NCBI RefSeq assembly: GCF_016623495.1
Contig: NZ_JAEHHL010000012.1
Location: 1-64,000 of the forward strand
DNA from: Thermohalobaculum xanthum
GTDB lineage: Bacteria; Pseudomonadota; Alphaproteobacteria; Rhodobacterales; Rhodobacteraceae
DNA length: 64,000 nt
Direction: 5' to 3'
Part shown: in pieces, positions 6,110 to 22,176 of the stretch
How the letters are laid out: every line of letters starts with the position of its first letter
How positions within the stretch are numbered: position 1 is the first letter of the stretch
Notes under the pieces: model-generated
What the model was told of the DNA's origin: nothing
Seen by the model: only the letters and a program-made list of their open reading frames with translations
The model's database searches: none
Made by a program: the position numbers and the translations under genes

Positions 6110-6299
6110 ACCTGCTTGAGTCGCATCATATTGATCGGATCTCTCCCTTAACGTGCCGAGGTGGCCGGAGCAAAAATTGTGTGCAGCGGACTGCAATGGC
6201 TTGCACTTCTTGAAAGGCTGTGCAGACCTCGGCGCTCGAGGCGGGATCGAGCTCTGAGGCACCGAGCAAAATGCCCGATTTTCCGAAGGGGGTAGAACA
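6110..6299. promoter_or_regulatory. Divergent promoter region between acyltransferase and polyene operon
   Basis: About 190 non-coding bases separate the start of the leftward acyltransferase from that of the 15-gene rightward operon. Both promoters must lie here if the operon has its own promoter. I cannot point to convincing -35/-10 boxes. AAGGGGGT just before 6300 serves as ribosome binding site for the first operon gene. Confidence 0.45.
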
Positions 6300-7031
6300 A
6301 TGAAGAGCCACAAACCCTATGTCGTGGGTGAGTATTATTCCGGGCCTGCCGAGAAGCAGGCGTTCCTGCGCGACATATTCGATCGTACCGCACCCTATTA
6401 CGAGGGTATCGCGAAGTGGGGATGGTTTGGCTCGGGGCAAATCTACCGGCGGAACGTACTGAAGCGGGCAGGGATCAGGCACGATATGCGCGTGGTCGAC
6501 GTCGCTTCAGGAACTGGGCCAGTGGCGCGGGCTCTAATATCGCTTCTCGACAGCCCCAGCCAAGTCGTCTGCGTGGAGCCGTCGGCCGGGATGATTGCCG
6601 AGTCGCGAAAGACCGTGCCCTGTGTTCACCATCAGGCGACGGCCGAGAGCCTTCCGGTTGAGGATCAGAGTTTCGATTTTCTGACGATGGGATTTGCGCT
6701 GCGTCACGTCGATGACCTAGATGCGACGTTCCGCGAGTTTCGTAGGGTCCTAAAGGACGGCGGGAAGGCGCTGGTGCTCGACGTCACCATTCCTGACAAT
6801 CCCGTCGGGCATTTCCTTTTCAAGGCTTACTTCAAACATATCCTCCCTTCACTCACGCTCGTCTTCAGCAGAAACCGGGAAGCGCACAAGCTGATGAAGT
6901 ATTACTGGGAGACGATGGAGCAGATGACTGGGCGCGAGGAGGTTGCAGAGATCATGCGCGAAGCGGGCTTTCGCGAGGTAAGGCACCGTGTTCTTCTTGG
7001 CTGCTTCTCGGAGTACGAGGCGGTGCGCTGA
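6300..7031 (+). CDS. Class I SAM-dependent methyltransferase (UbiE-like)
   Basis: A soluble 243-residue methyltransferase with the Rossmann SAM-binding motif VVDVASGTGP (about residues 63-72), acidic post-I residue in VCVEPSAGM, FDFLTMGFALRHV (motif IV region) and the UbiE/COQ5-like FREFRRVLKDGGKALVLDV. A short N-terminal IFDRTAPYYE also resembles UbiE. It is the first gene of the operon and its stop shares one base with the next ATG. In this setting it likely methylates a hydroxyl or ring carbon of the aryl head group, as proposed for methyltransferases of aryl-polyene clusters; true UbiE (quinone pathway) is less likely given the context. Confidence 0.85.
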   Translation: MKSHKPYVVGEYYSGPAEKQAFLRDIFDRTAPYYEGIAKWGWFGSGQIYRRNVLKRAGIRHDMRVVDVASGTGPVARALISLLDSPSQVVCVEPSAGMIAESRKTVPCVHHQATAESLPVEDQSFDFLTMGFALRHVDDLDATFREFRRVLKDGGKALVLDVTIPDNPVGHFLFKAYFKHILPSLTLVFSRNREAHKLMKYYWETMEQMTGREEVAEIMREAGFREVRHRVLLGCFSEYEAVR

Positions 7032-7783
7032 TGCAAGCTGAACCGCGGGTCCGGCCGCACTGGACCGTGCTGATTCCTGCGCACAACGAGGCGAAGACCA
7101 TCCGAGGTGTGGTCGAGGGCACTTTGCAGCATCTGCACGATGTTATCGTGATCGACGACGGGTCGACTGATGCAACTGCCAAAGCCCTGGACGGTTTGCC
7201 AGTGGAGATCATCCGGCACGAGCGTAACCGCGGAAAGGGATGGAGGCTCGCGGAGGGCCTCCAACGCGCAGTTTCTCGTGGTGCGGACGGAGTCATAACG
7301 CTCGATGCCGATGGCCAACACGACCCCGACGACATCCCGGCCTTTCTTGTGGCAGCGGACTCCGCTCCCGGAGCCCTTGTTGTCGGCGACCGGTCGCTGG
7401 AACGGTCATCGATGCCCATGAACCGTCGCGCGGCGATCCGGTTCGGCGACTTCTTCATTGGCTGGGCGGCGGGGCAAACCGTCAACGATGCGCAATGCGG
7501 ATTGCGGCTATATCCGGCGGCGATAATCAGGGAGGTTCCCGTTCCAGAGAACGAACGGGAGCACTTCGTCTTCGAGACGGCGATCCTGTTGCGGGCGGCG
7601 GCCGCTGGAAAAAGGGTCGTGCGTGTGCCCATCCGCGCCCGCTACCAAGGTTTCCAGCAACGCCCTAGCCATTTCAGGCCAGTCACTGATACCCTGAGAA
7701 TCGCGCGCACTGTGACGCACCTGCTGTGGCGGATCCGCATTTCGCCAAACCGGCTCTTGATCGCGCTCCGCACTGTGCGATAG
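7031..7783 (+). CDS. Family 2 glycosyltransferase
   Basis: A GT-A fold glycosyltransferase of 250 residues. It opens with LIPAHNEAKTI, followed by DDGSTDAT, the metal-binding LDADGQHDPDD (about residues 97-107) and GAL-type acceptor region; no transmembrane helix is evident, so it resembles dolichyl-phosphate mannose synthase-like cytosolic enzymes. The ATG overlaps the stop of the methyltransferase gene by one base, showing tight coupling. Such GT2 enzymes are regular members of aryl-polyene and flexirubin-type clusters, where they are thought to add a sugar or help build the lipid anchor. Donor and acceptor unknown. Confidence 0.87.
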   Translation: MQAEPRVRPHWTVLIPAHNEAKTIRGVVEGTLQHLHDVIVIDDGSTDATAKALDGLPVEIIRHERNRGKGWRLAEGLQRAVSRGADGVITLDADGQHDPDDIPAFLVAADSAPGALVVGDRSLERSSMPMNRRAAIRFGDFFIGWAAGQTVNDAQCGLRLYPAAIIREVPVPENEREHFVFETAILLRAAAAGKRVVRVPIRARYQGFQQRPSHFRPVTDTLRIARTVTHLLWRIRISPNRLLIALRTVR

Positions 7784-7822
7784 CCTCCCACCGGGCGGAA
7801 GTATTTGAATTTGGGGGATGAA

Positions 7823-8239
7823 ATGAAATCTCTGCTGCCAGGAGCCATCCTTGCCCTGGCGCTGGCAATTGGCGGATGCCGTGCTGCGCCGATTTATAAC
7901 GCCGAAGACGTTGCCTACACCGCAGCGCCGAGTACCACTGCGCAAGGCTTCACCCTCGATGACTACCGTGCGGCGATAATTCGGGCCGGCGCAAAGAGGG
8001 GCTGGGCATTCACTGACGAGGGGCCCGGGCACCTCGTTGGGAATGTCGCCGTGCGCAACAAGCACTTCGCGACGGTCGACGTCCTTTTCGACACCGAGGA
8101 ATTCTCGATCGAGTACAAATCGTCGCGTAACCTAAACTACGATGCGAGCCGGGGCGAGATTCACCCGAACTACAACTCCTGGATCTCCAACCTCCAGAAC
8201 GACATTCAGGCTGAAATCGCCATCATGAAGGCTGGCTGA
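7823..8239 (+). CDS. Small lipoprotein of the polyene cluster, function unknown
   Basis: A 138-residue predicted lipoprotein. The signal sequence (MKSLLPGAILALALAIGGC, lipid-modified Cys 19) is clear. The mature part contains FTLDDYRAAIIRAGAKRGW and LFDTEEFSIEYKSSRNLNY, reminiscent of small lipoproteins seen in aryl-polyene clusters. ATG 7823 is preferred over a TTG 18 bases upstream because GGGGGATGA just before it is a good ribosome binding site. The gene stands 39 bases after the glycosyltransferase gene and 19 before a dehydratase gene. Probably acts at the inner face of the outer membrane in product placement; this is inference. Confidence 0.75.
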   Translation: MKSLLPGAILALALAIGGCRAAPIYNAEDVAYTAAPSTTAQGFTLDDYRAAIIRAGAKRGWAFTDEGPGHLVGNVAVRNKHFATVDVLFDTEEFSIEYKSSRNLNYDASRGEIHPNYNSWISNLQNDIQAEIAIMKAG

Positions 8240-8258
8240 AAATAGCGGCCACCAGCTT

Positions 8259-8564
8259 ATGGAAGTCCTACGGTTCACACTGGAAAACGGATTTCCAGCG
8301 GATAGCCCCTTCTTCAACGGGCACTTCGTTGGAAATCCGATTGCTCCAGGCGCAATAATTCTTGGCACACTCTCAGCACGCTTGAACGAGAGTGGGAAGC
8401 AGATCGTCCAAGTACATCGGATGAAGTTCAACCGACCCTTAAGACCCGACATGGCTTTCGAAGTGACGGTCGCTCGACGCGGTTCCAGCTATCGAGCCGA
8501 GTTTCGGGACCATGACGGTGTCTTCGCGACGGCAGGGCTCGTGATCCGGCCGGCTTATGACTAA
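8259..8564 (+). CDS. FabZ-like 3-hydroxyacyl-ACP dehydratase (hotdog fold)
   Basis: A small 101-residue single hotdog protein. The signature PFFNGHFVGNPIAPGAI (His 22) matches the FabZ/FabA active-site loop H-F-x-x-x-P-x-x-P-G. It ends with YRAEFRDHDGVFATAGLVI, a typical last strand. In E. coli aryl-polyene synthesis two small dehydratases (ApeI and ApeP) work as a pair to form the conjugated double bonds; this protein looks like the ApeI-type partner of the protein at 14184-14612. The next gene starts inside its 3' end (8 bases of overlap). It could also act as a thioesterase-like hotdog, but the active-site loop favours dehydration. Confidence 0.85.
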   Translation: MEVLRFTLENGFPADSPFFNGHFVGNPIAPGAIILGTLSARLNESGKQIVQVHRMKFNRPLRPDMAFEVTVARRGSSYRAEFRDHDGVFATAGLVIRPAYD

Positions 8565-9465
8565 CGCCGTTCCAGATTGGGTTCGCGATCGCGAGCGTGG
8601 CAGCCAGGTAGCTTTGCGCGCCATGCATGCCATCGTTCAGAACGCCCCGCCACAGGTCGTCGACCCGCTAATTTGGCTCGTCTCGCTCTACTTCACTGTG
8701 TTCCCAAGCCGCGCCGCCGCCGCCGGTTCCAAGATGTACCTTGCGGCGGCGCTCGGTCGGAGACCGAGTTTTTCCGATCGCCACCGTCAGGTGCGAAACT
8801 TTGCCCATGTTGTCGTCGACAGGGTTGGGCTGCTCTCTGATGGCGCCGCGGCATTCGATCTGCGCTCTCGCAACGAGTCTCTTGTCGCCTCGCTTCACGC
8901 GCAGCGGAGAGGGGCGGTGCTTCTAGGCGCCCACTTCGGCAGCTTCGAGGCGATGCGAGCTTTCGACCGCACGCTGCCCGGTCTCTCGATCCGCTACTTG
9001 ATGTTCGAGGATAACGCTGAGATGACCTCGCGAATGCTCCAGCGGATAAACCCGGCCTTGTCGAGGCAGGTGATCCCTCTCCGGGATGGCATCGACGCCA
9101 TGCTGACAGTTTGCGATGCTCTGGAAGAGGGCAATTTCGTCGCGTATTTGGGTGACCGGGCACACCGAAGAAACATGCGCGCAGAAGTCGAGGTGGACTT
9201 CCTGGGGCATCGTGCACGATTCCCGCGCGCCCCCTACATGAGCGCCATGCTGGCGAAGGTGCCCATTATCCTCTGCTTCGCGCCTCGGGTCGGTCGGAGA
9301 GCTTATGAGATCGAGTTCATGGAGTTGCATGATGGATCGCCCGTCCCACGCCGGGAGCGGGATGAAAAATGCCGCGAACTGGCGCAGCGCTATGCGGACG
9401 CTCTGGGCGATATGTGCCGCCGGCATCCTTACAACTGGTTCAACTTCTTCGACATATGGCGCTGA
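8557..9465 (+). CDS. Lipid A acyltransferase-like protein (LpxL/HtrB family)
   Basis: A 302-residue member of the LABLAT acyltransferase family, which transfers acyl chains from ACP to a lipid or glycolipid at the inner membrane. Visible: an N-terminal hydrophobic stretch (DPLIWLVSLYFTVFPS), the catalytic GAHFGSFEA (H-x4-E), LGDRAHRRN corresponding to the conserved DR region, and the C-terminal HPYNWFNFFDIW, which is close to the P-x-x-W-F-N-F-x-x-F-W ending of these cluster proteins. Such genes are standard in aryl-polyene clusters. It probably attaches the polyene acyl chain to its carrier lipid. The gene overlaps both neighbours. Confidence 0.87.
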   Translation: MTNAVPDWVRDRERGSQVALRAMHAIVQNAPPQVVDPLIWLVSLYFTVFPSRAAAAGSKMYLAAALGRRPSFSDRHRQVRNFAHVVVDRVGLLSDGAAAFDLRSRNESLVASLHAQRRGAVLLGAHFGSFEAMRAFDRTLPGLSIRYLMFEDNAEMTSRMLQRINPALSRQVIPLRDGIDAMLTVCDALEEGNFVAYLGDRAHRRNMRAEVEVDFLGHRARFPRAPYMSAMLAKVPIILCFAPRVGRRAYEIEFMELHDGSPVPRRERDEKCRELAQRYADALGDMCRRHPYNWFNFFDIWR

Positions 9466-9991
9466 GGGGGAGTTTGGAGGGTGCGCAGCCCCAGCGCCAG
9501 GGAGCGCCATCGCGGCAATTGAGAATCTCCGGATAGATCCGGAGGCCACGGTCTCCTATCGCGAACAGATCCACCATCCAGCGTTAACTGAGCCGGAGCG
9601 CGCAAGCGGACTGATGTGGATTGAGCCGAGCGGCCGGCTGGTCAAGAAACAAATCACTCCCAGAGAGGAGATCAGTGAGGTTGGAGAGGACTTCGTATCG
9701 GTGCGGAAGCATGTCGAGGATCAGCGGAACCTTCTCCCCATCCCGCCTGAAGCGCGGCGCATGCTCACCGCACTGCGCGACGTGATGTCAGGGGATGCCG
9801 AGGCGTTGGAAACCCGCTACTCGCCAGTAATGACGGAAGCGCAACCGCTCTGGCGCCTTCGCCTCGCCGTACATGACGATCCAGACTACTTGCCAATCTT
9901 TCTGATTGGGTGCGGTAGCCAGCTCAGAGGCATCGAGATCCGCGAACCAGGCGGAGTGCGACGACTCGTTGTATTCGACAGGCCGTTGTGA
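9392..9991 (+). CDS. LolA-like outer membrane lipoprotein carrier protein
   Basis: A periplasmic protein of about 199 residues with a cleavable signal (MRTLWAICAAGILTTGS, cut near YGA-EG). The mature part resembles LolA-type carriers: LMWIEPSGRLVKKQIT, LRDVMSGDAEALETRYSP and a terminal GVRRLVVFD. In aryl-polyene clusters a LolA-like protein and an MMPL transporter are paired, by analogy with Lol transport of lipoproteins, and are thought to carry the finished lipid to the outer membrane. ATG 9392 is chosen because it begins a proper signal peptide; this makes the gene overlap the acyltransferase gene by 74 bases. A longer frame from 9305 would bury the signal. Confidence 0.78.
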   Translation: MRTLWAICAAGILTTGSTSSTYGAEGEFGGCAAPAPGSAIAAIENLRIDPEATVSYREQIHHPALTEPERASGLMWIEPSGRLVKKQITPREEISEVGEDFVSVRKHVEDQRNLLPIPPEARRMLTALRDVMSGDAEALETRYSPVMTEAQPLWRLRLAVHDDPDYLPIFLIGCGSQLRGIEIREPGGVRRLVVFDRPL

Positions 9992-12204
9992 TGCGCCTTT
10001 TGCTCGCGTTCACTTTTGCTGTGGGCCTTATGGCCGCGGCGGTCGCGGCGATTGAGATCGATACCGACGCGCGTGCACTGGTCGGGGATAACGGGGCGAT
10101 TGCCTCTGCCCTCGATACCGTCGAAGGCCGGTCGATGCTACTTGCGATCATCGACGACGATCGAGAGTCGCGGAGCACCGTGGCGAGAGAGGTGGTCGAT
10201 GCGCTCGGTGGCGAGCCGATGGTCGCTCACGCATCGACGGGGATCATAACGCCTCCGTCCGGTCTTGCCGACTGGTTGTGGAGGGAACGGTTCACGCTGT
10301 CGCCACCGCCTTCATCGGCGTTCACGACTGACGCCATGGCAAGGGAACTGATCGCGGGCAAGTCGGAACTGACCAGTTTTGGAGGGGCTGGGCTAGCTCA
10401 CTACTATCTGCTCGACCCAACCGGCAGCTTCCGTCGACTGATCGAAGCGCTCGTTTTTGCCGCTAGCGGCGGCCTCCCCATGATTGACGGAGTGCTGCAG
10501 TCCCTCGACGACACCGCCGCGCTCGTAACGATCCAGCTTTCACCGATGCCCTTCGATGTCGATGCACAGCTGGCGCTCGACTGGTCCATTGTCGAGCAGG
10601 TCGAGATGGCGGGGGCGGAGGCGATCATCGTCGGGCCACGCTCCATTGCCGCCGCCATCAGCGCCGGTATCGAGGATAGCTCAAAGACCGTCGCCGTTCT
10701 TGGTGGAGCGCTCCTTCTGATCTGGTTGGTAGCAGTTCTCCGGTCGGCCACCTCGATTTTGCGTGTGTTCCTTCCGCTCGCGATAGGGTTTGCTGCGGCA
10801 GCAATGACGGTCCAGGCGGCATTCGGGACCGTCCACGTGATAGCCCTCGGTTTCGGGGGGGCTCTCATGGGGCTTGCAATCGATTACCCGTTGCACCTCC
10901 TCTCCCATGCGAGAACGAGTGGCGGTGTCGAGGGCGCGCGACGCCTGGTACTGCTGGGTGCATCGACGACAGCGATCGCGTTTCTTTCGCTTTTGGGCTC
11001 AGGGATCCCCGCGATCGGTCAAGTCGGGCTCTTCGTTTCAACTGGTCTTGGTGGTGCGGCGCTTGCGGCAGTCGCAATCGGCATTGAGGGTGAACAGAGG
11101 CACGCTTGGAATCGTCTAGCCGTACCCACGTTCCCGCCAGTGCGTTGGAAACTAGCGTTGCTTGCCGCAACAGGACTTGTCTCCGGCGCCGTGATCGCCG
11201 CTTCGCCGGGACCGGGCGCGCGTGGCCTTCTCGAGCTGCCGACGCCCGTCATGGCGTCTATCTATGCTCTCGATCGGATGATGGACCTTCCGTCAGGTCG
11301 TTATCGGATCGACGTCACTGCACCGACACTTGACCACCTTCTCGCGCAACAGAGACGGCTCACACAGCGTTTAGGAGAGGCCCGTGCAGAGGGAGCGCTT
11401 GGTCGTTTCGCGATGCTGGCAGACAAGCTCCCAGCCGACGCTGGCACAGTGTTCCCTAATGTCGAGGCCTTCGCTTCGCGAGCCTCCGAGGCGTTGCGCC
11501 AAGCGGGACTGCGTGAGTCCTTCCAGGGCGATATTGTCGAAGCTTACAGGCACGCCCTCGATCGTCCGGCGCTCGGCCCTGCTGAGGTGGCGCCGCTTGT
11601 CGAACCTTTGGCGCCATCGGGCGCCATCCGCATCGAGGGCGCTGCCCTCGTTGGCAGCGTCAGGCTTTGGGAGGTTGAAAACGCGGATCGCATTGAGGCG
11701 GCTGTTCAAGGGCTTGAAGGGGTCAGCTTCATCGATGAGCGCGCTGCGCTTTCGGCCCGACTGGAGCATTTGGCAGGTCGGATCACGGTCTGTTTCTTAG
11801 CCGGCATTGCGGCGTGTGCTGTCGTACTTGTGCTCGCTCTGCGGCGTGTTCGCCCGGTCGCCGAAGTGATGGCATCATGCCTCGCCGCTGCTGCTGTCAC
11901 TGCGGCGTTCGTGACTATCATCGGCGGTGGACTAGGCGTTTTTACTCTGGTCGCCCTCGCCCTTGTGGTGGGGATAGGGATCGACTATGGGATCTTCTTG
12001 ACATTGAGCGAGGGCCCCGAGGCTTCCGCAGCTGCGATGCGCTCGGTTGGCATGTGCGCGAGCACAACGCTCATTGCGTTCCTTGTCATGGCATTCTTCG
12101 GCTCCGACATGCTCAGGGATATTGGTATGACTGTATCACTTGGCGTGGCGGCAACCGCGCTTGCGTCTTTCCTTCGCCAAGAATGGGGTTTCGCGCGACA
12201 TTGA
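9991..12204 (+). CDS. MMPL/RND-family transporter, probable polyene lipid exporter
   Basis: A 737-residue integral membrane protein with the doubled RND/MMPL layout: an N-terminal helix, a periplasmic loop of about 200 residues, a block of helices from about residue 235 (LLLIWLVAVLRS, LPLAIGFAAAAM, MGLAIDYPLHLLSHAR), a second periplasmic loop, and a second block near the C-terminus (AGIAACAVVLVLAL, VVGIGIDYGIFLTL, LIAFLVMAFFG). The two GxAIDY/GIGIDY segments are typical of MMPL and SecD-like exporters. Proton-motive-force driven export of the lipid product to the LolA-like carrier is the expected role. A GTG directly before ATG 9991 is an alternative start; the ATG shares a base with the upstream stop. 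Confidence 0.88.
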   Translation: MRLLLAFTFAVGLMAAAVAAIEIDTDARALVGDNGAIASALDTVEGRSMLLAIIDDDRESRSTVAREVVDALGGEPMVAHASTGIITPPSGLADWLWRERFTLSPPPSSAFTTDAMARELIAGKSELTSFGGAGLAHYYLLDPTGSFRRLIEALVFAASGGLPMIDGVLQSLDDTAALVTIQLSPMPFDVDAQLALDWSIVEQVEMAGAEAIIVGPRSIAAAISAGIEDSSKTVAVLGGALLLIWLVAVLRSATSILRVFLPLAIGFAAAAMTVQAAFGTVHVIALGFGGALMGLAIDYPLHLLSHARTSGGVEGARRLVLLGASTTAIAFLSLLGSGIPAIGQVGLFVSTGLGGAALAAVAIGIEGEQRHAWNRLAVPTFPPVRWKLALLAATGLVSGAVIAASPGPGARGLLELPTPVMASIYALDRMMDLPSGRYRIDVTAPTLDHLLAQQRRLTQRLGEARAEGALGRFAMLADKLPADAGTVFPNVEAFASRASEALRQAGLRESFQGDIVEAYRHALDRPALGPAEVAPLVEPLAPSGAIRIEGAALVGSVRLWEVENADRIEAAVQGLEGVSFIDERAALSARLEHLAGRITVCFLAGIAACAVVLVLALRRVRPVAEVMASCLAAAAVTAAFVTIIGGGLGVFTLVALALVVGIGIDYGIFLTLSEGPEASAAAMRSVGMCASTTLIAFLVMAFFGSDMLRDIGMTVSLGVAATALASFLRQEWGFARH

Positions 12205-13403
12205 TGGCCACACTCAGCCAGATGCCCCCGCTGGAGCAACTCGCCATCACTGGGCGGGTTGCCGTAACGTGCGTAGGACGCGGGCGTGAGGCACATGTCG
12301 ACGCGATGTCTAGCGGGCGTTCTGGGCTCACTGCATGTGATTTTCCAGGGGTTGATTTTCCCTGCTGGATCGGACGGGTCGGCGGCATCGAAGATGAGTT
12401 GTTTCCTGGCCGTATGGCTGCCTATGAGAACCGAGCGACGCGCCTGGCCGTGTCGGCCCTTGAAACGGAGGGGTTCTCTTGTCGCGTCGCGGCGGCGATA
12501 TCGCGGTGGGGCAGCCGAAGGGTCGGGCTTGTGATCGGCACGTCGACTTCCGGTGTCGAGAAGCTGGAAAATGTCTACCGAAATTGGTCCGGCAATGGAC
12601 CGCTCGATCCAGCCTACTCGCTCCGGCACCACAACGACCATCATGCTGTGACGTCCTTCCTTGCCGAGTATCTTGGCATTGAGGGGATCGGCTACACGGT
12701 CTCCACGGCCTGCTCGTCCGCCGCGAAGGCGCTTATCGATGGCGCGCAACTGATCCGTCTAGGGCTCTGCGATGCTGTTCTGACGGGCGGAGTCGACAGC
12801 CTTTGTTTGACTTCGCTCTTTGGCTTTGAAGCTCTGGAGCTCGTTTCACGAGAACCCTGCCGCCCCTTTGACGCGCGCCGTGATGGTTTGTCGATCGGCG
12901 AGGGTGCGGGTTTCATCCTACTCGAAAGGGAAGGAGACGGTCCAAGGCTGCTTGGTTATGGCGAGACATCGGATGCCGTCAGCATGTCTACACCGCCGCC
13001 GGAAGGCGAGGGTGCTCAGGCGGCCATGCGCGAAGCACTCGGGCGTGCATCGCTCGATCCCGAGGAAATCGAGTTCGTTAAGCTCCATGGAACCGCGACG
13101 AAGAGCAATGATCTGGCAGAGTCGGCGGCGGTAGCGAGCATATTCCCTTTCGGGCCACCGTCGGCCTCTCTGAAGGGGATGATCGGACACACCTTGGGGG
13201 CAGCTGGTGCGGTCGAGGCCGTGCTCTGCCTCGACGCGATGGAGTCGGGTATCGTGCCTGGGACAGTCGGCTTATCGGCGCCCGATCCGGCACTCGCACT
13301 CGTTCCCCGCATTCAATCAGCCTCAGGAGAAATACGGCGCGCAGTCTGCAACGCCTTTGGGTTCGGGGGCAGCAATTCCTCCCTCGTACTTGGACTCTCA
13401 TGA
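12204..13403 (+). CDS. Beta-ketoacyl-ACP synthase (FabF-like, polyene chain extension)
   Basis: A 399-residue condensing enzyme with the complete C-H-H triad: Cys170 in VSTACSSAAK, His295 in KLHGTATKSND and His329 in GMIGHTLGAAGAVEA. A FabF-like ending NAFGFGGSNSSLVLG is present. It joins malonyl-ACP to the growing polyene. Its stop overlaps the start of the chain-length-factor-like gene, the same pairing as ApeO with ApeC in E. coli, where the two form a heterodimer. ATG 12204 overlaps the exporter stop (ATGA) and gives the normal FabF length; the frame is open further upstream inside the exporter gene but without family-like sequence. Confidence 0.92.
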   Translation: MATLSQMPPLEQLAITGRVAVTCVGRGREAHVDAMSSGRSGLTACDFPGVDFPCWIGRVGGIEDELFPGRMAAYENRATRLAVSALETEGFSCRVAAAISRWGSRRVGLVIGTSTSGVEKLENVYRNWSGNGPLDPAYSLRHHNDHHAVTSFLAEYLGIEGIGYTVSTACSSAAKALIDGAQLIRLGLCDAVLTGGVDSLCLTSLFGFEALELVSREPCRPFDARRDGLSIGEGAGFILLEREGDGPRLLGYGETSDAVSMSTPPPEGEGAQAAMREALGRASLDPEEIEFVKLHGTATKSNDLAESAAVASIFPFGPPSASLKGMIGHTLGAAGAVEAVLCLDAMESGIVPGTVGLSAPDPALALVPRIQSASGEIRRAVCNAFGFGGSNSSLVLGLS

Positions 13404-14200
13404 AGGCGACGCTCTTCGTTGACGGCGTTGGCTACGCGGCACCGGGACTGCGGACTGCCGTCGCTCTTCAGGAACACTTTGACGGGGCCCCGTTCGAAGT
13501 CGAGGAGACCTGGACAGCGATGCCTGCTTGCCTCGCGCGGCGGCAGGCACTTCGCTTGAGCGACACGACACGCCTGGCGATCATGGCCGCCGAAGCAGTT
13601 GGCCCCCTGCTTCCAAGAGATTGTAGCTGGATATTTGCAAGTTCGACCGGCGAAGGCGGAACTTTGAACGAGATCCTGCTCGCACTCCGTGCCGATCCGA
13701 TCATGATCCAGCCTCTCCGTTTTCAGAACGCGGTGCACAATGCCGCCCAGGGCAACTGGTCGATTGCCGCAGGTGCAAAGGGCGGAATGACAAGTGTCGC
13801 AGCTTACGATGCCACAGCGGGCGCTGGCCTTTTGAAGGCGACCATGCAGGCTCTGATGGATGACTGCCCGGTGGGACTTGTCGTATTCGATGCCCCCTTG
13901 CCGCCACCGCTCCATGAGAAACGCCCTCTTGAGCTCTCGATGGCGGCGGCGTTCGCCCTTTCACCGCAGAGGGGCGAGAACAGCCTCGCGGCGCTCGATC
14001 TGGATGTCGTGGCAGACGAGACGGCAACCGACCCTTCGCTTTCTGGTGCGCATCGGTCGCTGACCGACAGCGGAAACCCAGTTCGGTTCCTTCTTCCTCT
14101 CCTGCGTCAGATCTTCTGGCCCAAGGGGGAAACAGTCACTCTCGACCTCCCAGGTAAGCTGGCTTTGACTGTAACGCCATTGAGTGTCGGCGATGCTTGA
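13400..14200 (+). CDS. Beta-ketoacyl synthase-like chain length factor (no catalytic Cys)
   Basis: A 266-residue protein of the short ketosynthase-like family (Ketosyn_2 type). It follows KS folds (VDGVGYAAPGL, RRQALRLSDTTRLAIMAAE, FASSTGEGGTLNEIL) but where a ketosynthase has its nucleophile it reads VAAYDATAGAGLLKA, with no Cys. In aryl-polyene pathways such a subunit pairs with the active KS and is thought to set chain length and shape. It overlaps the KS gene by four bases, as expected for subunits made in equal amounts. ApeC-like by position and length; catalysis on its own is not expected. Confidence 0.85.
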   Translation: MKATLFVDGVGYAAPGLRTAVALQEHFDGAPFEVEETWTAMPACLARRQALRLSDTTRLAIMAAEAVGPLLPRDCSWIFASSTGEGGTLNEILLALRADPIMIQPLRFQNAVHNAAQGNWSIAAGAKGGMTSVAAYDATAGAGLLKATMQALMDDCPVGLVVFDAPLPPPLHEKRPLELSMAAAFALSPQRGENSLAALDLDVVADETATDPSLSGAHRSLTDSGNPVRFLLPLLRQIFWPKGETVTLDLPGKLALTVTPLSVGDA

Positions 14201-14612
14201 GGATGCCCTCGACCGCATGCCCCATTCAGGACCGATGCGCCTGATCGAGTCGGTACTTGCCTCAGACCTCGACAGGGTGCGGTGCATTGCGACCGATCAT
14301 CGGTCGCCTACCTATCCCCTCCGGCTCGGGGGCATGCTCTATGGTGCGACCATGATCGAGATCGGCGCGCAGGCGGCGGCGATTCACGCCTCACTCCACG
14401 CCGTCGGTGCCGCTCATACAGGTCTAATCCTCGCGCTCACTGACGTCGTCATCTCGCGCGACTTGGTCGAGAGCGAAGGACGGTTGGAGGTCGGAGCAGA
14501 ACGGATCGAGGGCGATGAAAACGGCGCGCGCTACCGCTTCGAGGTTGTAGATGGAGAGGGCGTCATCGTGTCTGGCGAGCTTCTACTCAGTATGCGGCGG
14601 AGGGACGATTGA
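14184..14612 (+). CDS. ApeP-type hotdog dehydratase
   Basis: A hotdog-fold protein of about 139-142 residues. It begins LDRMPHSGPMRLIESV, where the histidine and the P-H-x-G-P-M block match the ApeP/FabZ-related dehydratases of aryl-polyene clusters, followed by GGMLYGATMIEIGAQAAAIHA with the acidic partner residue. It is expected to team with the small dehydratase at 8259-8564. Two starts are possible: GTG 14184 and ATG 14193; the ATG is the more likely. Either overlaps the CLF-like gene. Its end overlaps the ketoreductase start. Confidence 0.85.
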   Translation: MSAMLEDALDRMPHSGPMRLIESVLASDLDRVRCIATDHRSPTYPLRLGGMLYGATMIEIGAQAAAIHASLHAVGAAHTGLILALTDVVISRDLVESEGRLEVGAERIEGDENGARYRFEVVDGEGVIVSGELLLSMRRRDD

Positions 14613-15328
14613 AACGCGCGTTCGTCACAGGTGGATCTAGTCCGATCGGCGCGGCGATCGCGCGCGAGCTTTCCCGGCAGGGACACCACGTGATCGTCCA
14701 CGCGAGCCGAAACCACACTGCAGCGGAGGAAACGGCGGACGGAATACGCCGCGATGGCGGTAGCGCTGAGACGATTGTCCTCGACCTGACAAGGGTGGAA
14801 GAGACGCAGAAGCGACTCGGCGAAGTCGTTGAGTCCGAGCCGATCCAAATCTTTGTTCATAATGCCGGCCTCCACCGAGATATGCCCTTCGCAGCGATGG
14901 AGCCAGACGACTGGCGCGCGGTGATCGACGTCAACCTCAACGGCTTCTACGCGGCATTGAAGCCATTGATGCTGCCGATGATGCGGACACGCTGGGGGCG
15001 CATCATCGCCATTTCGTCTCTCACGGCGATCACCGGCAATCGCGGGCAGACAAATTATGCTGCGGCGAAGGGAGGTCTTCTGCCGCTCGTGAAGTCTTTG
15101 ACGCGGGAGTATGGCAGTCGAGGTATTACTGCGAACGTCGTGGCGCCAGGGCTCATCGCGACGTCTGAGACCGAGGCGCTCCAAAACTTCGATCAACTCG
15201 CGAGCCTCTGCCCTGCGGGACGACCCGGCCGCCCCGAAGAGGTCGCCGCGATTGTCGGCTTCTTAGCATCCGAGGCATCAGGTTATATCTCGGGCCAGAT
15301 GATTGCAGTCGATGGAGGAACAAGCTGA
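14609..15328 (+). CDS. 3-oxoacyl-ACP reductase (FabG-like SDR)
   Basis: A classical short-chain dehydrogenase of 239 residues. It shows the NADPH-binding TGGSSPIG (residues 7-14), VHNAG, the catalytic Ser in ISSLTAITG, and Tyr150/Lys154 in NYAAAKGG, ending with SGYISGQMIAVDGG as in FabG. In the operon it reduces the beta-keto group between condensation and dehydration (ApeQ role). The start is a TTG overlapping the upstream TGA; no ATG exists near the motif, so translation is probably coupled. The downstream oxidoreductase ATG shares the last base. Confidence 0.92.
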   Translation: MKRAFVTGGSSPIGAAIARELSRQGHHVIVHASRNHTAAEETADGIRRDGGSAETIVLDLTRVEETQKRLGEVVESEPIQIFVHNAGLHRDMPFAAMEPDDWRAVIDVNLNGFYAALKPLMLPMMRTRWGRIIAISSLTAITGNRGQTNYAAAKGGLLPLVKSLTREYGSRGITANVVAPGLIATSETEALQNFDQLASLCPAGRPGRPEEVAAIVGFLASEASGYISGQMIAVDGGTS

Positions 15329-16620
15329 TGGATGGCGCAGCGCCGCTTCCCGAGGATGGCGTCGCCACGGTCCGGCGCTGCGATGTCATGGTGATCGGCG
15401 GCGGCCCCGGGGGGGCGGCTACAGCGGCCTTCCTGGCATTAAAGGGTCATCACGTTGTTCTCGTGGAGAAGGATCGTCATCCACGCTTTCATATCGGGGA
15501 GTCGTTGCTGCCGCGCAGCCTGCCGCTCCTCGAAGAACTCGGCATGCTTGACCAAGTGCGCCGGATCGGCGTCTTCAAGCCAGGAGCCGAGTTCATCAGC
15601 GAGGATGGCAGCCGAGAAGCGGTGTTCGATTTTCGAAACGCCCTTCTCGACGGGCCAACACATGCCTATCAAGTCCGTCGGTCCGAGTTTGATCAGATCA
15701 TTTTCGAGCGCGCGATTGCTCTCGGGGTTGAGGCGCGGCAGCAGACCATGGCCCACATTGTCTCGATGGAGGACGACAGCGCAAAGGTCAGAACCGAGGG
15801 AGCCGATGGCGAGATCATCGACTGGGAGGCGAGCTTTCTTGTTGATGCCTCCGGGCGCTCAACTCTGATTTCAAAAATGCTGTCGGAGAAGCGTCCGGAC
15901 CCGCGCAACACTTCGGCTGCAATCTTCGGACATTTCCGCGGCGTCCCGCGTAGTGAGGGCGAGCGCGGCGGCAATATTCGGATCTACCTTACCCGTCCGG
16001 GATGGATGTGGCAGATTCCCTTGCGTGATGACGTTACCTCGATCGGTTTCGTCGCGTCGGGCGAGCATCTCCAGAAGCGCGACTCTGGCGTCGAGGCCTT
16101 CTTCAAAGCGCATTGCGCTCGCCATCCGCACATCGCGTCGATCCTTGGATCGGCCGAACGCATCGGACCCATGCATGCCACTGGCAACTTCTCGTACCGC
16201 GCCACGACCGCCGCAGGTTCGCGCCACATCAAGGTTGGCGACGCGTACGGGTTCATTGATCCGATCTTCTCGACGGGAGTTCATCTGGCATTGACGAGCG
16301 CCAGAGAGGCGGCCTCCGCCATAACCGACATACTCGCAGACCCCTCGACGAGAACTCGTCGTCTTGCGCAATATCATCAGGAAATCGAACGACGTCTGAC
16401 TTTCGTCTCGTGGTTCATTTATCAGATTCACGATCCGAGTTTTCGAGAGATGATGGTCAACCCGAGGAACATTCTAGGTGTTGAGAGCGCAATGATTTCG
16501 CTTCTTTCAGGTGATTTTCGACCCGACATTCGGATCCGATCGCGCATTGCACTGTTCAGGCTGTTTCGCTACATCGTCGCCGCGACCGGTTCGCGGGAGA
16601 GGAGGAACCTGGATGGATGA
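15328..16620 (+). CDS. FAD-dependent oxidoreductase of the flavin-dependent halogenase family
   Basis: A 430-residue flavoprotein with the dinucleotide-binding VIGGGPGGAATA (about residues 22-33), the halogenase signature WMWQIP (226-231, pattern W-x-W-x-I-P), FIDPIFSTG (309-317) matching the F-x-x-P-x-x-S-T-G block of halogenases, and a lysine (Lys84) in GVFKPGAEF near where such enzymes carry the lysine that forms the haloamine. No partner flavin reductase lies in the operon; one is at 37769. In xanthomonadin clusters a related enzyme is linked to ring bromination. A polyene-ring halogenase is the best guess, a hydroxylase the main alternative. Its stop lies 8 bases inside the ACP gene. Confidence 0.82.
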   Translation: MDGAAPLPEDGVATVRRCDVMVIGGGPGGAATAAFLALKGHHVVLVEKDRHPRFHIGESLLPRSLPLLEELGMLDQVRRIGVFKPGAEFISEDGSREAVFDFRNALLDGPTHAYQVRRSEFDQIIFERAIALGVEARQQTMAHIVSMEDDSAKVRTEGADGEIIDWEASFLVDASGRSTLISKMLSEKRPDPRNTSAAIFGHFRGVPRSEGERGGNIRIYLTRPGWMWQIPLRDDVTSIGFVASGEHLQKRDSGVEAFFKAHCARHPHIASILGSAERIGPMHATGNFSYRATTAAGSRHIKVGDAYGFIDPIFSTGVHLALTSAREAASAITDILADPSTRTRRLAQYHQEIERRLTFVSWFIYQIHDPSFREMMVNPRNILGVESAMISLLSGDFRPDIRIRSRIALFRLFRYIVAATGSRERRNLDG

Positions 16621-16900
16621 CACAAGTGCCATCGGTGGCTTCGAAGCGTTTCGCAGGGAGGTGGCGTCGATGATCATCGAAGAGCTTGTCCTCGATGACA
16701 CTGCACCCGAGGATATCGACCCTGCCGCACCGCTCTTCATTGACGGGCTTGGGCTCGACTCGATTGATGCGCTTGAACTCTCGTTCGCGATCTCGAAGCG
16801 CTACGGCGTCAAGCTCCGGTCGGGCGACGAGCGGAATCGGGAGATATTTTCTTCGCTCGATGAGCTCAGCCGGTACATCCGGGAGCACAGGACAACGTGA
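16613..16900 (+). CDS. Acyl carrier protein
   Basis: A 95-residue acidic carrier protein. GLGLDSIDALEL holds the phosphopantetheine attachment site (Ser50, DSID in place of the common DSLD). It follows ACP layout, with a first helix (FRREVASMIIEELVL) and a last one (SLDELSRYIREH). ATG 16613 is preceded by AGGAGGAA, a clear ribosome binding site inside the halogenase 3' end. It is the only ACP in the operon, while many aryl-polyene clusters have two. It carries the polyene chain during synthesis and is probably loaded by the ligase at the end of the operon. Confidence 0.9.
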   Translation: MDDTSAIGGFEAFRREVASMIIEELVLDDTAPEDIDPAAPLFIDGLGLDSIDALELSFAISKRYGVKLRSGDERNREIFSSLDELSRYIREHRTT

Positions 16901-17541
16901 GTTTGAACCGGTCATCGATCGGCTATCTCATTGTCGGGGTACTGATCGCCGCATTGGCGGGAAGAACGGCTGGGTGGGTGTCGGACAAGGCGTTAGATAT
17001 TGTCTTTCTTTTTTCCTTCGCTTGGTTTGCCTACAGCGCCCTGTTGATGCGCATTGGCACGGCGTCGGCGATCATGGTCTCGCTGTCGCTCTTTGTCAGC
17101 CTGCTCGTATTGCGACACAGTTTCCCGTCATTGCGCTACATGCCGTATCTCATGATCGCACCCGTCAATTTCGCTTTGTCGGTGCTGTTTGCGCGTGGGC
17201 TGATGCCAGGGCGCCGGCCCGTACTGCTCACGCTAATCGATATTATCGGCATGGCTCCGGTCGTGGACACCAAGTTTCAGCGCTTCGTCGCACGGCAGTG
17301 CCTTCTGTGGAGCGTGATGGCATTCGGGACAGCGCTGCTAGCCCTCGCCGGGATCTTCTTTGAGACCGTGAGGCCCGCCATCTCGTTGGCGCTGGAGGTA
17401 CTGATTGGGGCGCAAGTTATCTGGTTCGCGCTTTCACACTACTACGCCTCGCGTCGTTACCACCGCCCGGAGACATGGTGGACGACCCTGAAAACGATGG
17501 TACGGCCCGATGTATGGTCCCGTTTAGGGAAGATGTCATGA
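16897..17541 (+). CDS. COG4648-type polytopic membrane protein of polyene clusters
   Basis: A 214-residue membrane protein with about six hydrophobic helices: IGYLIVGVLIAALAG, LDIVFLFSFAWFAY, ASAIMVSLSLFVSLLVL, YLMIAPVNFALSVLFA, LLWSVMAFGTALLALAG and ISLALEVLIGAQVIWFAL. Between helices it has MRPGRRP-like and QRFVARQCLLW blocks typical of the COG4648 proteins that accompany aryl-polyene ketosynthases. The molecular role of this family is not settled; a part in anchoring the synthase or in handling the lipid at the inner membrane is assumed. GTG 16897 overlaps the ACP stop, and its own end overlaps the ligase start (ATGA). Confidence 0.78.
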   Translation: MSLNRSSIGYLIVGVLIAALAGRTAGWVSDKALDIVFLFSFAWFAYSALLMRIGTASAIMVSLSLFVSLLVLRHSFPSLRYMPYLMIAPVNFALSVLFARGLMPGRRPVLLTLIDIIGMAPVVDTKFQRFVARQCLLWSVMAFGTALLALAGIFFETVRPAISLALEVLIGAQVIWFALSHYYASRRYHRPETWWTTLKTMVRPDVWSRLGKMS

Positions 17542-18908
17542 TCCCAACGAGCTCTCCGTCCGGACTAGCGGAGCCGTTTTGCGTAACAGCAGGCGGAGCC
17601 ATTAGCGCCGCGGACTTTCTCGTGGACGTCGCAGCGGCCCGCCATTGCCTCGCCGGCCACGATGCGATTTGCAACATGGCAGAGGCTCGCTACGACTTCT
17701 CGGTTCTGCTATCGGCCGCGATGGCAAACGGACAAACAACGGTCCTGCCACCGTCACGCGCCACCGCTGCCGTCGCCGCTGCACTCGATGGTTGGCGCTC
17801 CCCCCTCACGGTCAAAGCCCTGTCAGATATCGGTCTCGAGCGGCTAAACTCCGAAGCACATGCAGAAAATCAAGCGTTGCCAAAATTGACCGGCCAGGTC
17901 CACGTCTTCACGTCGGGATCGACTGGAAAGCCGGTTCGGCATCTGAAGAACTGGCGTTCGCTCGCTGATGGAGCTCGGCTCACGGCCGAAATTGTCGCGA
18001 GTGCTGGGCTTGAACAAGTCGATACGGTGATGCTGGGAACAACTCCGCACCAGCATATGTATGGGCTGGAGGCAGCGATCTTTGCTGGCATTGCCCATGG
18101 GTACTGCCTGCACGATGCGACGGTCTTCTTTCCTGCCGACCTCGAACGCGCAGTCGACGAGGCGACAGGCCAAGGCATGTCCGATGTCGTCTTGGTGACA
18201 AGCCCGGCGCATCTACGTTTCCTTGAGGAAACGATTGTCACGCTGCCGCAGATTCGCTGCATCATCTCGGCCACCGCACCTCTGCATCGCGACGTTGCAC
18301 GACGCCTCGAAGCGTCGGGGACACGAAAGGTTTTCGAGATATATGGGAGCACTGAAACAGGCTCCCTTGCCCGGCGACGGAGCGCTGAGACGGACCTCTG
18401 GACGCCACTGGACGGCTTTCGGATCGTTGGCCGCGGCGATCGCTGGTTTGCCTCGGCGCCGCATCTGCACGCTACAATCGCCCTAGCGGACGATATCGAT
18501 CTTGAATCCGACGGTCGCTTTCGCCTCCTCGGCCGGCGAGGCGATATGGTGCGGGTCGCGGGAAAGCGGCAGAGCCTCGGCGGGCTGAACGCTGTGCTCT
18601 CGCTGATGCCGGGGCTGCGAGATGGCGTCATATTGAGCGAACCTGGTGCCGACGGCGATCAACTTTCTCTGTTCGTCGTGACCAACGGGGAGAAGCCAGC
18701 GGACCTGCATGCTCTGCGAAAGGCAGTCCGAGCTCACATGCTTGGTTATGTGGATCCAGTTTTCGTGCCGCGGCACGTCCACATCGTCGACCGGATCCCG
18801 AGAGGTGATACAGGTAAGATCTCGGCGGCAGACCAGGTGGTGATGATGAGCGCCGCGCGACGAGGTGCTGATCAGGCTGCGCCAAAGGTTGCCGGAAAGC
18901 GCGAGTAA
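17538..18908 (+). CDS. AMP-dependent synthetase/ligase (aryl acid:ACP ligase candidate)
   Basis: A 456-residue adenylate-forming enzyme. The ATP-binding loop VFTSGSTGKPVRHLKNW (about residues 122-138), EIYGSTETG (A5 motif), the A8-like RLLGRRGDMVRVAGKRQSL and the C-terminal lysine region IPRGDTGKISAAD are all present, so both domains are intact. In aryl-polyene systems such a ligase (ApeH) activates 4-hydroxycinnamic or a related acid and loads it on the ACP. ATG 17538 overlaps the preceding stop and gives the usual start; it is the last gene of the operon and ends 7 bases from a convergent gene. Acid substrate not deducible. Confidence 0.87.
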   Translation: MIPTSSPSGLAEPFCVTAGGAISAADFLVDVAAARHCLAGHDAICNMAEARYDFSVLLSAAMANGQTTVLPPSRATAAVAAALDGWRSPLTVKALSDIGLERLNSEAHAENQALPKLTGQVHVFTSGSTGKPVRHLKNWRSLADGARLTAEIVASAGLEQVDTVMLGTTPHQHMYGLEAAIFAGIAHGYCLHDATVFFPADLERAVDEATGQGMSDVVLVTSPAHLRFLEETIVTLPQIRCIISATAPLHRDVARRLEASGTRKVFEIYGSTETGSLARRRSAETDLWTPLDGFRIVGRGDRWFASAPHLHATIALADDIDLESDGRFRLLGRRGDMVRVAGKRQSLGGLNAVLSLMPGLRDGVILSEPGADGDQLSLFVVTNGEKPADLHALRKAVRAHMLGYVDPVFVPRHVHIVDRIPRGDTGKISAADQVVMMSAARRGADQAAPKVAGKRE

Positions 18909-18915: not shown

Positions 18916-19551
18916 TCACTGACGATCAATCGGCTGCAGACCATCGAGCTCCGATATCACCGCATCTACATCTCCCCGGTGCTTTTCGAACATGCTGCCG
19001 ATTACCTCTCGCTGCGTGACTGCCAAGGATATCCCTTCGACAACAAGATCCGAGATTGCGACTTTGCCGGAGCGCTCGGACACGATCCAGTTCACGGAGA
19101 TGGCGATCTCGTTGAGCGGCCGAATCTCGCTAGTCACCATGATGCCCTTGGAGCCGATGTCGCGTGCGTCGCCAAGATGAACATAGGTGCGCAGATCCTC
19201 GACAGTTCCTTCAAACGCACGGAAGTAACCGGCGTAGATCCGCGCGATGTAGCGCGAAAAGGCATCGACGAACTGGATGTGCTGCGCATCCGTCATTTCT
19301 CGCCATTTGCGCCCGGCAGAAAATCGCGCAAGCTGCGGCAGCGCGGCCTTTTCCATCAAGATGCGGTTTAGCTGCGCGGCTGTCTCGTGTCTCGGCGCAT
19401 TAGCGACGATAAGCGCCAAGACTTCGTCAATCGTCGCGCTGACGTGGGCGCGCGCGACGTCTGTCGCGACCGTCTGAGCCTGCACCGTACGGGCCGGGAC
19501 CGTCGCTGCGATCCCTAAAACGACAAATGATCTTCTCGTGAGAACTGTCAT
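18916..19551 (-). CDS. MlaC/Ttg2D-like phospholipid-binding exported protein
   Basis: A 211-residue exported protein of the MlaC (toluene tolerance Ttg2) family. It begins with a twin-arginine-like signal (LTRRSFVVLGIAATVPART), followed by a helical domain with MTDAQHIQFVDAFSRYIARIYAGYF, the hallmark segment of this family, and later strands with IMVTSEIRP. MlaC proteins carry phospholipids through the periplasm. No Mla ABC genes are nearby, so it may serve transport of the polyene lipid instead. ATG 19551 is chosen as it starts the signal peptide; ATG 19575 is possible. It faces the polyene operon (7-base gap) and lies downstream of the cysteine-rich and radical SAM genes. Confidence 0.8.
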   Translation of the reverse strand: MTVLTRRSFVVLGIAATVPARTVQAQTVATDVARAHVSATIDEVLALIVANAPRHETAAQLNRILMEKAALPQLARFSAGRKWREMTDAQHIQFVDAFSRYIARIYAGYFRAFEGTVEDLRTYVHLGDARDIGSKGIMVTSEIRPLNEIAISVNWIVSERSGKVAISDLVVEGISLAVTQREVIGSMFEKHRGDVDAVISELDGLQPIDRQ

Positions 19552-19619
19552 TTCCAAGCCATTCAGGCAGAGCATGCGCCGGTTGAAAGGTGACTGGAGT
19601 TCCGCTGCACCTGATCCGC

Positions 19620-19931
19620 TCAGGGGGAGATACGCTGAACGAGCGGCGCGAGTTTATCTTCCGTTGGTTCGAGCACTCTGAGATTGCCGCTGCACGACCG
19701 CGCGTCATACTCGACGCTCCCAATCACGGCATCTCCCAAAACCTCCTCGATCATCGCATACAGCAGGTACATGGCCATGCCCCAGCGCCAGTTCACCCTG
19801 TAGCTAGCGATATTCTTACACTCTGGAAGTATCGGTACTGGACAATCTTGTTTCGACGCCTCGCAGCGAACGCACCAGGCCGCTTCGGTTGGCGTGCAGA
19901 TCGACGCATCACGTCTATAGGGCGCCAACAT
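19620..19931 (-). CDS. Small cysteine-rich protein of unknown function, overlapping a radical SAM gene
   Basis: A candidate 103-residue protein not recognised as any family. It has five cysteines in its first 40 residues (Cys12, 20, 23, 30, 38; the middle pair as CVRC), a hydrophobic MAMYLLYAMIEEVLG, and EYDARSCSGNLRVLE near the end. Its ATG lies 17 bases inside the 3' end of the radical SAM gene, a form of translational coupling, and it is followed after 68 bases by the MlaC-like gene. The cysteines could bind a metal or Fe-S cluster, or be substrate for modification. Reality of the gene rests on the coupling and the cysteine pattern, so confidence is moderate. Confidence 0.5.
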   Translation of the reverse strand: MLAPYRRDASICTPTEAAWCVRCEASKQDCPVPILPECKNIASYRVNWRWGMAMYLLYAMIEEVLGDAVIGSVEYDARSCSGNLRVLEPTEDKLAPLVQRISP

Positions 19932-22174: not shown

Positions 22175-22176
22175 GG

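What the first reader, a model, noticed from the sequence alone, without database searches (positions are those of the whole stretch)
6300..18908. Aryl-polyene-like operon carried on a probable genomic island
Fifteen coupled genes give a complete chain-building and export set (KS, CLF-like partner, ketoreductase, two dehydratases, ACP, ligase, acyl-, glycosyl- and methyltransferase, LolA-like carrier, MMPL exporter). Their place on an element that ends in a tRNA-Lys fragment suggests that the pigment/lipid trait moves between strains.
Basis: partly seen in the sequence, partly recalled or inferred. Interest (0 to 1): 0.7.

Follow-up and report, generated by a model that had tools for sequence, protein, structure and literature searches.

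The report
Aryl-polyene pigment genes on tRNA island
A marine alphaproteobacterium carries what looks like a full gene set for a membrane-bound polyene pigment, with an added halogenase-like enzyme, on what is very probably a foreign DNA element inserted at a lysine tRNA gene; the kind of gene set is already known.

Summary
Window 6300-18908 carries 15 tightly coupled genes. KS, CLF, KR, two dehydratases, ACP, ligase, MMPL and GT2/LpxL-type transferases each match an E. coli ape gene; the KS falls with ApeO, away from FabF, FabB and ApeR.

The island is supported. The intact tRNA-Lys(TTT) lies on contig C28 beside a tyrosine integrase. A 23-nt repeat occurs only twice in the genome, just inside the intact tRNA and just inside the fragment. 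GC is 0.56-0.60 inside, 0.68-0.70 outside. The KS orthologue is in 2 of 295 family genomes and 3 of 5 genus genomes, own included.

Limits: the left end is cut by a contig break; no clean empty site was found; in Limibaculum sediminis the operon lies beside, not inside, its tRNA-Lys element; that species carries the operon yet is listed as cream-coloured (PMC11426391); the aryl starter source is unknown. A new member of a known kind.

The parts
5324..6313 (-). PlsC-type acylglycerol-phosphate acyltransferase, divergent, ApeD-like (whole frame; true start uncertain)
   Evidence: Pfam Acyltransferase; 27% to E. coli ApeD, E 2e-12; same place in G002, G008, G004
6300..7031 (+). UbiE/COQ5-family methyltransferase
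   Evidence: PF01209 E 4e-32; 89% in G002, 73% in G008, not found in the G004 locus
7031..7783 (+). GT2 glycosyltransferase, equal to the N-terminal part of ApeJ
   Evidence: PF00535; 32% to ApeJ residues 8-232, E 1e-26
7823..8239 (+). ApeA-like lipoprotein
   Evidence: 35% to E. coli ApeA, E 4e-22; lipobox-like GGC seen by eye
8259..8564 (+). FabZ-like dehydratase half carrying the His (ApeI-like)
   Evidence: PF07977; E 2e-6 to ApeI; GHF motif kept, FabZ Glu absent
8557..9465 (+). LpxL-type acyltransferase, equal to the C-terminal part of ApeJ
   Evidence: PF03279; 25% to ApeJ residues 243-550, E 2e-24
9392..9991 (+). putative periplasmic carrier in ApeL (LolA-like) position
   Evidence: No Pfam hit, best PDB match E 0.056 and unrelated, no significant match to ApeL; conserved in G002, G008, G004; weak match in Aquitalea L084, E 1e-5
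9991..12204 (+). MMPL/RND-family exporter, ApeM-like
   Evidence: PF03176; 23% to ApeM, E 4e-11
12201..13403 (+). ketosynthase, ApeO-like
   Evidence: NCBIfam PRK09185 422.7 bits over cut-off 407; best PDB chains 6qsp_A and 7f28_B; 39% to ApeO
13400..14200 (+). short chain-length-factor partner, ApeC-like
   Evidence: PF13723; only PDB match at E 0.01 is 7f28_A; 26% to ApeC, E 2e-4
14184..14612 (+). dehydratase half carrying the Glu (ApeP-like)
   Evidence: E 2e-5 to ApeP; IEIGAQ motif, FabZ His absent
14609..15328 (+). 3-ketoacyl-ACP reductase, ApeQ/FabG-like
   Evidence: NCBIfam FabG over cut-off; 39.5% to ApeQ
15328..16620 (+). flavin-dependent halogenase-like protein
   Evidence: PF04820, PF01494; best PDB matches are mostly halogenases, incl. 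CmlS 3i3l; WMWQIP, GESLLP and FKPGA in the sequence
16613..16900 (+). acyl carrier protein, ApeE-like
   Evidence: NCBIfam PRK09184 over cut-off; 48% to ApeE; GLDSI serine
16897..17541 (+). membrane protein in ApeG position
   Evidence: No Pfam hit; no significant match to ApeG; lies between ACP and ligase
17538..18908 (+). AMP-forming acyl/aryl ligase, ApeH-like
   Evidence: PF00501; 27% to ApeH, E 2e-27
18916..19575 (-). MlaC-family periplasmic lipid carrier, neighbour of the operon
   Evidence: PF05494; also beside the operon in G002 and G004, on the other side
19915..21048 (-). HydE-like radical SAM protein, co-travelling (whole frame; true start uncertain)
   Evidence: TIGR03956 212.9 bits, under cut-off 254.6; beside the operon in G002, not found in the G004 and G008 loci
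21599..21621 (+). right copy of the 23-nt repeat, likely integrase arm site
   Evidence: Two exact copies in the whole genome, no other with up to 3 mismatches
21738..21784 (+). tRNA-Lys(TTT) 3' fragment, right attachment site
   Evidence: intact tRNA at C28:6937-7011

Best explanation
It is an aryl-polyene-type lipid pathway, acquired horizontally and carried on an integrative element that uses tRNA-Lys(TTT). Inferred pathway: the ligase loads an aromatic acid on the ACP; KS-CLF adds malonyl units; KR and the two-part dehydratase turn each into a double bond; the flavoprotein probably halogenates (or oxidises) the head or chain and the methyltransferase methylates it; GT2 and the acyltransferases attach the chain to a lipid; the MMPL protein, the putative periplasmic carrier and the ApeG-position protein take it to the outer membrane. 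Element: a tyrosine integrase beside the intact tRNA recombines the tRNA 3' half, leaving the fragment at 21738-21784. Shown: gene content, conserved motifs, tRNA fragment, end repeats, GC step, patchy distribution. Inferred: chemistry, pigment, the C28-C4 join, mobility today.
For: Gene-by-gene ape matches; KS with ApeO in the tree; PDB best chains; His and Glu of the dehydratase split between two proteins as in ApeI/ApeP; same order of 16 genes in G002 and G008 and of 15 (no methyltransferase) in G004. Island. Rarity: 2 of 295 family genomes at E <= 1e-70, own included. The KS of G008 (other genus) is nearer to own and G002 than that of G004 (same genus) is, support 99/97. G002 has the upstream flank of C28 and a match to own C4:103913-105226 on one contig, which puts C28 and C4 in one neighbourhood.
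Against: L. sediminis FT325, which has the whole operon, is listed as cream-coloured (PMC11426391, passages). UbiC not found in the genome; an XanB2-like query was empty, but that answer itself warns that it shows nothing. No second ACP, and no own counterpart of ApeR, ApeK, ApeN or ApeB in the operon. The residue that is Gln in the FxQG stretch of ApeC and of four Lysobacteraceae CLF rows is Ala here and Ile in L. sediminis. The left end lies off the contig; C28 and C4 share no end overlap. In G002 the operon lies outside the tRNA-bounded stretch.
Confidence: 0.8

Rival explanations
1. The operon makes a related type II product that is not an aryl polyene (for instance a non-aromatic polyene acid or an unusual lipid), because no aromatic-acid source is seen.
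For: UbiC family without match in the own genome; no chorismatase or ammonia lyase among the operon's Pfam hits; ligase only 27% to ApeH; cream colonies listed for L. sediminis.
Against: KS, CLF, ACP, KR and the split dehydratases match ape proteins; relatives make ubiquinone-10 (PMC11426391 passages), whose ring comes from 4-hydroxybenzoate (general knowledge).
Confidence: 0.15
2. The operon is an older resident of this chromosomal zone, and a tRNA-Lys element only inserted next to it, as the G002 layout suggests.
For: G002 layout: intact tRNA at C21:346.8k, fragment at 331.5k, then HydE-MlaC-operon; KS orthologue in 3 of 5 genus genomes; a diverged, GC-rich version in G004.
Against: Own genome: the operon lies on the inner side of the fragment and of the repeat that is found only at the two ends; 2 of 295 in the family; gene tree against genus assignment.
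Confidence: 0.2
3. The flavoprotein is a hydroxylase, epoxidase or dehydrogenase, not a halogenase.
For: NCBIfam also lists flavin monooxygenase QhpG (158 bits, under cut-off) and PDB the flavoprotein/dehydrogenase 3nix; its CmlS match is far under that model's cut-off (193 of 900 bits).
Against: W.W.IP and a K.GA stretch in the own protein and in G002, G008, G004, L070 and L086; of 7 PDB sequences at E <= 1e-38 four are named halogenase, two are CmlS and ChlB4 (halogenases by recall) and one is 3nix. W.W.IP alone also stands in 24 of 25 distant copies and so does not decide.
Confidence: 0.35

Closest known systems
APE_Ec, the ape cluster of E. coli CFT073 (apeA-R)
   Same: KS-CLF, ACP, KR, two dehydratases, ligase, GT/acyltransferase, PlsC acyltransferase, MMPL exporter, ApeA lipoprotein; similar runs I-J(C-terminal part)-L-M-O-P-Q and E-G-H
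   Different: ApeJ split in two genes; CLF next to KS; no second ACP and no own counterpart of ApeK, ApeN, ApeR or ApeB; other methyltransferase; extra flavoprotein
Xanthomonadin-type clusters (Lysobacter enzymogenes OH11, PMC3691225, abstract and passages; L070, L086 here)
   Same: KS next to short CLF, GT2, LpxL-type, MMPL, DH and KR; flavoprotein copies of 46-47% beside the clusters of Pseudoxanthomonas L070 and Lysobacter soli L086
   Different: Other gene order and strands; OH11 has the XanB2 homologue ORF5 (paper) and Rhodanobacter L024 a chorismatase-like gene, to which the own genome gave no match in an uncontrolled query
Aquitalea pelogenes cluster (L084)
   Same: Same order DH-LpxL-LolA-MMPL-KS-CLF-DH-KR
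   Different: No flavoprotein, methyltransferase or ApeA-like match at E 1e-4 in the locus held; KS 45%
Acetobacteraceae aryl polyene clusters (PMC8776678, passages)
   Same: Alphaproteobacterial clusters with an adenylate-forming protein and a 'probable halogenase'
   Different: Sequences not compared here

Membership tests
Aryl polyene biosynthetic cluster | KS of ApeO type with adjacent short CLF (ApeC type) | tested here: met
Aryl polyene biosynthetic cluster | Two dehydratase subunits with complementary active-site residues | tested here: met
   His in 8259-8564, Glu in 14184-14612, as in the alignment with FabZ and E. coli ApeI/ApeP; that ApeI and ApeP form a heterodimer is recalled
Aryl polyene biosynthetic cluster | Dedicated ACP, KR and AMP-forming ligase | tested here: met
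Aryl polyene biosynthetic cluster | Outer-membrane export set (ApeM, ApeL, ApeG, ApeN) | tested here: inconclusive
   ApeM met; ApeL and ApeG by place only; ApeN not found
Aryl polyene biosynthetic cluster | Second ACP (ApeF) and second KS (ApeR), as in E. coli | tested here: not met
   One ACP and one KS in the operon. Not strictly required: E. coli apeF and apeR mutants keep APE metabolites (PMC8253772 passages); ApeO-ApeC alone made fully elongated polyene in vitro (PMC8358021 abstract)
Aryl polyene biosynthetic cluster | Aromatic starter acid | not testable with these tools
   UbiC without match, XanB2-like query empty but uncontrolled
Flavin-dependent halogenase | GxGxxG, W.W.IP and catalytic Lys region | tested here: met
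   GGGPGG, WMWQIP, FKPGA; the role of these motifs is recalled
Flavin-dependent halogenase | Halogenating activity | not testable with these tools
   needs an assay
tRNA-targeted integrative element | Intact tRNA beside a tyrosine integrase, and displaced 3' fragment at the far end | tested here: met
   the two ends lie on different contigs, so the join is inferred
tRNA-targeted integrative element | Empty site in a relative | tested here: inconclusive
   Upstream flank found in G001, G003 and G004 without a tRNA beside it in the stretches fetched
tRNA-targeted integrative element | Excision or transfer | not testable with these tools
   needs PCR or reads

The most novel reading that the evidence does not exclude
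An integrative element at tRNA-Lys spreads a halogenated, single-ACP aryl polyene lipid pathway among Limibaculum-like marine bacteria, bringing also an MlaC carrier and a HydE-like radical SAM enzyme that may move or tailor the lipid; a halogenated aryl polyene from this family would be a new product.
Probability: 0.25. Interest if true: 0.55.

Novelty: new member of a known kind. Interest (0 to 1): 0.38.

Why it matters
It gives a concrete vehicle for an aryl polyene operon: both ends of the element are marked by tRNA copies and by a repeat found nowhere else in the genome. It also adds an alphaproteobacterial branch, rare in its family, with a halogenase-like enzyme, which makes a chemical prediction that can be tested in a named environmental strain with the same operon (L. 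sediminis FT325).

Tried and rejected
A plain inversion or circular permutation as the whole difference between own and G002: rejected, because MlaC also changes side and strand. The tRNA-Val at 55057 as boundary: rejected, far outside the GC step. Direct contig overlap C28-C4: none. Structure prediction of the ApeL-position protein: three attempts, machine busy, so its name rests on place. Starter gene: UbiC none, XanB2-like none but uncontrolled; other starter routes (ammonia lyase) not searched in the genome. Papers with xanthomonadin gene names: none found. The ORF picks include antisense frames and served only for order. KS tree: 27 of the 80 KS loci plus G004, chosen by me for spread; itself kept the best 80 of 375 and its loci were found with this KS as query; the E. 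coli rows are long branches and the tool warns of them. Some protein starts used (PlsC-type and HydE-like frames, ACP) were arbitrary in-frame cuts, not start codons; identities do not hang on them.
Full report
What is there. The window is contig C4:1-64000 of a 4.05 Mb genome in 33 contigs. Its nearest named relative among the loci found is Limibaculum sediminis FT325: contig NZ_JAMFKN010000002.1 has the length of G002:C21 and the KS lies at the same place. From 6300 to 18908 fifteen genes run on the + strand with overlapping or nearly touching ends. Domain searches give methyltransferase, GT2, FabZ-like, LpxL-type acyltransferase, MMPL, KS, CLF-like, FabG-type KR, flavin halogenase-like, ACP and AMP-forming ligase; four genes have no Pfam hit. 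A divergent PlsC-type acyltransferase (frame 5324-6313, -) keeps its place in G002, G008 and G004 and belongs to the set.

Is it an aryl polyene cluster? Against the 18 ape proteins of E. coli CFT073 window proteins find ApeA, ApeD, ApeJ (as two separate genes, N- and C-terminal parts), ApeI, ApeM, ApeO, ApeC, ApeP, ApeQ, ApeE and ApeH, with E-values from 4e-70 (KS) to 2e-4 (CLF). The genes in ApeL and ApeG position have no significant match and are named by place. ApeF and ApeR are hit only by the same ACP and KS, more weakly; ApeK, ApeN and ApeB have no counterpart. The KS scores 422.7 bits with PRK09185 (cut-off 407) against 219.9 with FabF (cut-off 493.75). Its best solved relatives are 6qsp_A and 7f28_B; the paper on the Acinetobacter ApeO-ApeC structure holds the code 7F28 (PMC8358021, passages), and that 6qsp is ApeO of Xenorhabdus is recalled. 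In a 35-row tree the KS lies with ApeO and with Lysobacteraceae, Rhodanobacteraceae, Comamonadaceae and Aquitalea KS, apart from FabF, FabB and ApeR, with the tool's warning about long branches. The two dehydratases divide the FabZ active site: the first keeps His and lacks Glu, the second the reverse, as E. coli ApeI and ApeP do. KS Cys-His-His, ACP Ser and ligase motifs are present. One residue runs against a simple match: the Gln of the FxQG stretch in ApeC and in four Lysobacteraceae rows is Ala here and in G008, Ile in L. sediminis, and Ala in the Variovorax, Luteibacter, Dyella and Aquitalea rows; whether it is the Q166 needed for pigment in Lysobacter (PMC3691225, abstract) I could not settle.

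The extra enzyme. 15328-16620 finds mostly flavin-dependent halogenases among solved chains: of 7 sequences at E <= 1e-38 four are named halogenase, two are CmlS and ChlB4, one is the flavoprotein/dehydrogenase 3nix. It carries WMWQIP, GESLLP and FKPGA. Of 81 loci searched (the 80 and G004) 30 have a hit: five at 46-83% identity with all three stretches (G002, G008, G004, Pseudoxanthomonas L070, Lysobacter soli L086), and 25 at 22-28%, of which 24 keep W.W.IP; W.W.IP alone therefore does not decide. A halogenase gene is reported in Xanthomonas xanthomonadin clusters (PMC3691225, passages) and a 'probable halogenase' in Acetobacteraceae aryl polyene clusters (PMC8776678, passages), so the addition is not new in kind.

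Is it on an island? ARAGORN finds no tRNA-Lys in the window, but the 3' part of tRNA-Lys(TTT), from within the anticodon arm to CCA, stands at 21738-21784. In the whole genome a 34-nt piece of it occurs only there and in the intact gene at C28:6937-7011. Directly downstream of the intact gene lies a tyrosine integrase; further on come a weak Rep_trans match, a GNAT and a MarR-type gene, up to the end of contig C28. A 23-nt sequence occurs twice in the genome, with no other copy up to three mismatches: 43 nt inside the intact tRNA and 116 nt inside the fragment, in the same orientation to the tRNA. These look like integrase arm sites and tie the two contig ends into one element of at least 28.7 kb if directly joined; the join itself is not shown. 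GC is 0.5985 for window 1-21786 and 0.558 for C28:1-6936, against 0.684 and 0.700 outside.

Distribution. At E <= 1e-70 the KS occurs in 2 of 295 genomes drawn evenly from the family, own included. In the genus all 5 genomes have some KS match at E <= 1e-40, but at 60% identity or more only 3 of 5 (own, G002, G004); G001 and G003 have FabF-level matches of 33-35%, G003 being 85% complete. G008, of another genus, has all 16 genes in the same order, as has G002; G004 has 15 of 16, without the methyltransferase. G008 is nearer to own and G002 than G004, a congener, is: 99/97 in the KS tree, and of 15 proteins found in both, 11 are closer to G008, two tie, two (on partial alignments) favour G004. 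This is what transfer between genera would give; it leans on the genus labels of the collection.

The counter-example. In L. sediminis (G002) the operon also lies in the tRNA-Lys neighbourhood, with HydE-like and MlaC genes beside it, but outside the 15.3-kb stretch between intact tRNA and fragment, and with the fragment on the other side of the operon. That stretch has its own tyrosine integrase, next to the fragment, and no DNA similarity to the C28 end beyond the tRNA copies. The upstream flank of the tRNA is conserved between the two genomes (83-85%), and G002:C21:300006-301319 matches own C4:103913-105226 at 86%, which supports that C28 and C4 are neighbours in the own genome. The zone between is variable and rich in repeats. 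So the zone is shared, but the element is not the same. In G001, G003 and G004 the orthologous upstream flank has no tRNA beside it in the stretches fetched (only 0.9 kb was available in G003), so the empty-site test could not be made.

Function. In E. coli most core genes are needed for pigment, while apeF and apeR mutants keep APE products (PMC8253772, passages), and ApeO-ApeC alone made fully elongated polyenes in vitro (PMC8358021, abstract). The present set could therefore suffice. The aryl source is open: no UbiC match (the control rings in E. coli), and no match to a chorismatase-like XanB2 candidate from Rhodanobacter, an uncontrolled query. L. sediminis, with the full operon, is listed as cream-coloured, while Paralimibaculum aggregatum, with an antiSMASH aryl polyene cluster, is pale orange (PMC11426391, passages). 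Pigment may be weak, regulated or absent.

Known or new. Aryl polyene clusters that vary between strains, discussed with genomic islands, are in print for Dickeya zeae (PMC8864124, passages). I saw no paper on this operon in Limibaculum; searches: 'Limibaculum' (26 papers, 20 listed; passages of one read), 'Limibaculum sediminis' (3), aryl polyene with island terms (12 of 1,250 listed). The library is open-access only. I file it as a new member of a known kind, with a well-marked vehicle.

Noticed in passing
window 22462-24267 (-): Vanadium-chloroperoxidase-like protein (DUF6851, VCPO_2nd, PAP2) just outside the island; a 75% DNA match lies elsewhere in G002 (C21:75537-77064).
   Followed up: no
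window 22169-22331: 93% copy of the end of a GNAT acetyltransferase gene that lies inside the element at C28:2011-2173, now outside the right tRNA fragment; hints at an earlier insertion or recombination at the same site.
   Followed up: partly
window 21960-22167: Sequence repeated at many places of the genus genomes, next to the attachment site; perhaps part of an insertion sequence, not identified.
   Followed up: no
window 19915-21048 (-): HydE/PylB-like radical SAM protein under the HydE cut-off, beside the operon in own and G002, not in the G004 and G008 loci; role unknown.
   Followed up: partly
window 133-3231: UvrD-like helicase protein near the cut left end of the contig; may be incomplete at its start.
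   Followed up: no
L019: Record titled Oceanobacillus sp. HTM 045 (a Bacillota name) has the contig length of G008, which the genome tool places in this family, and its KS groups here; the title is probably wrong.
   Followed up: no
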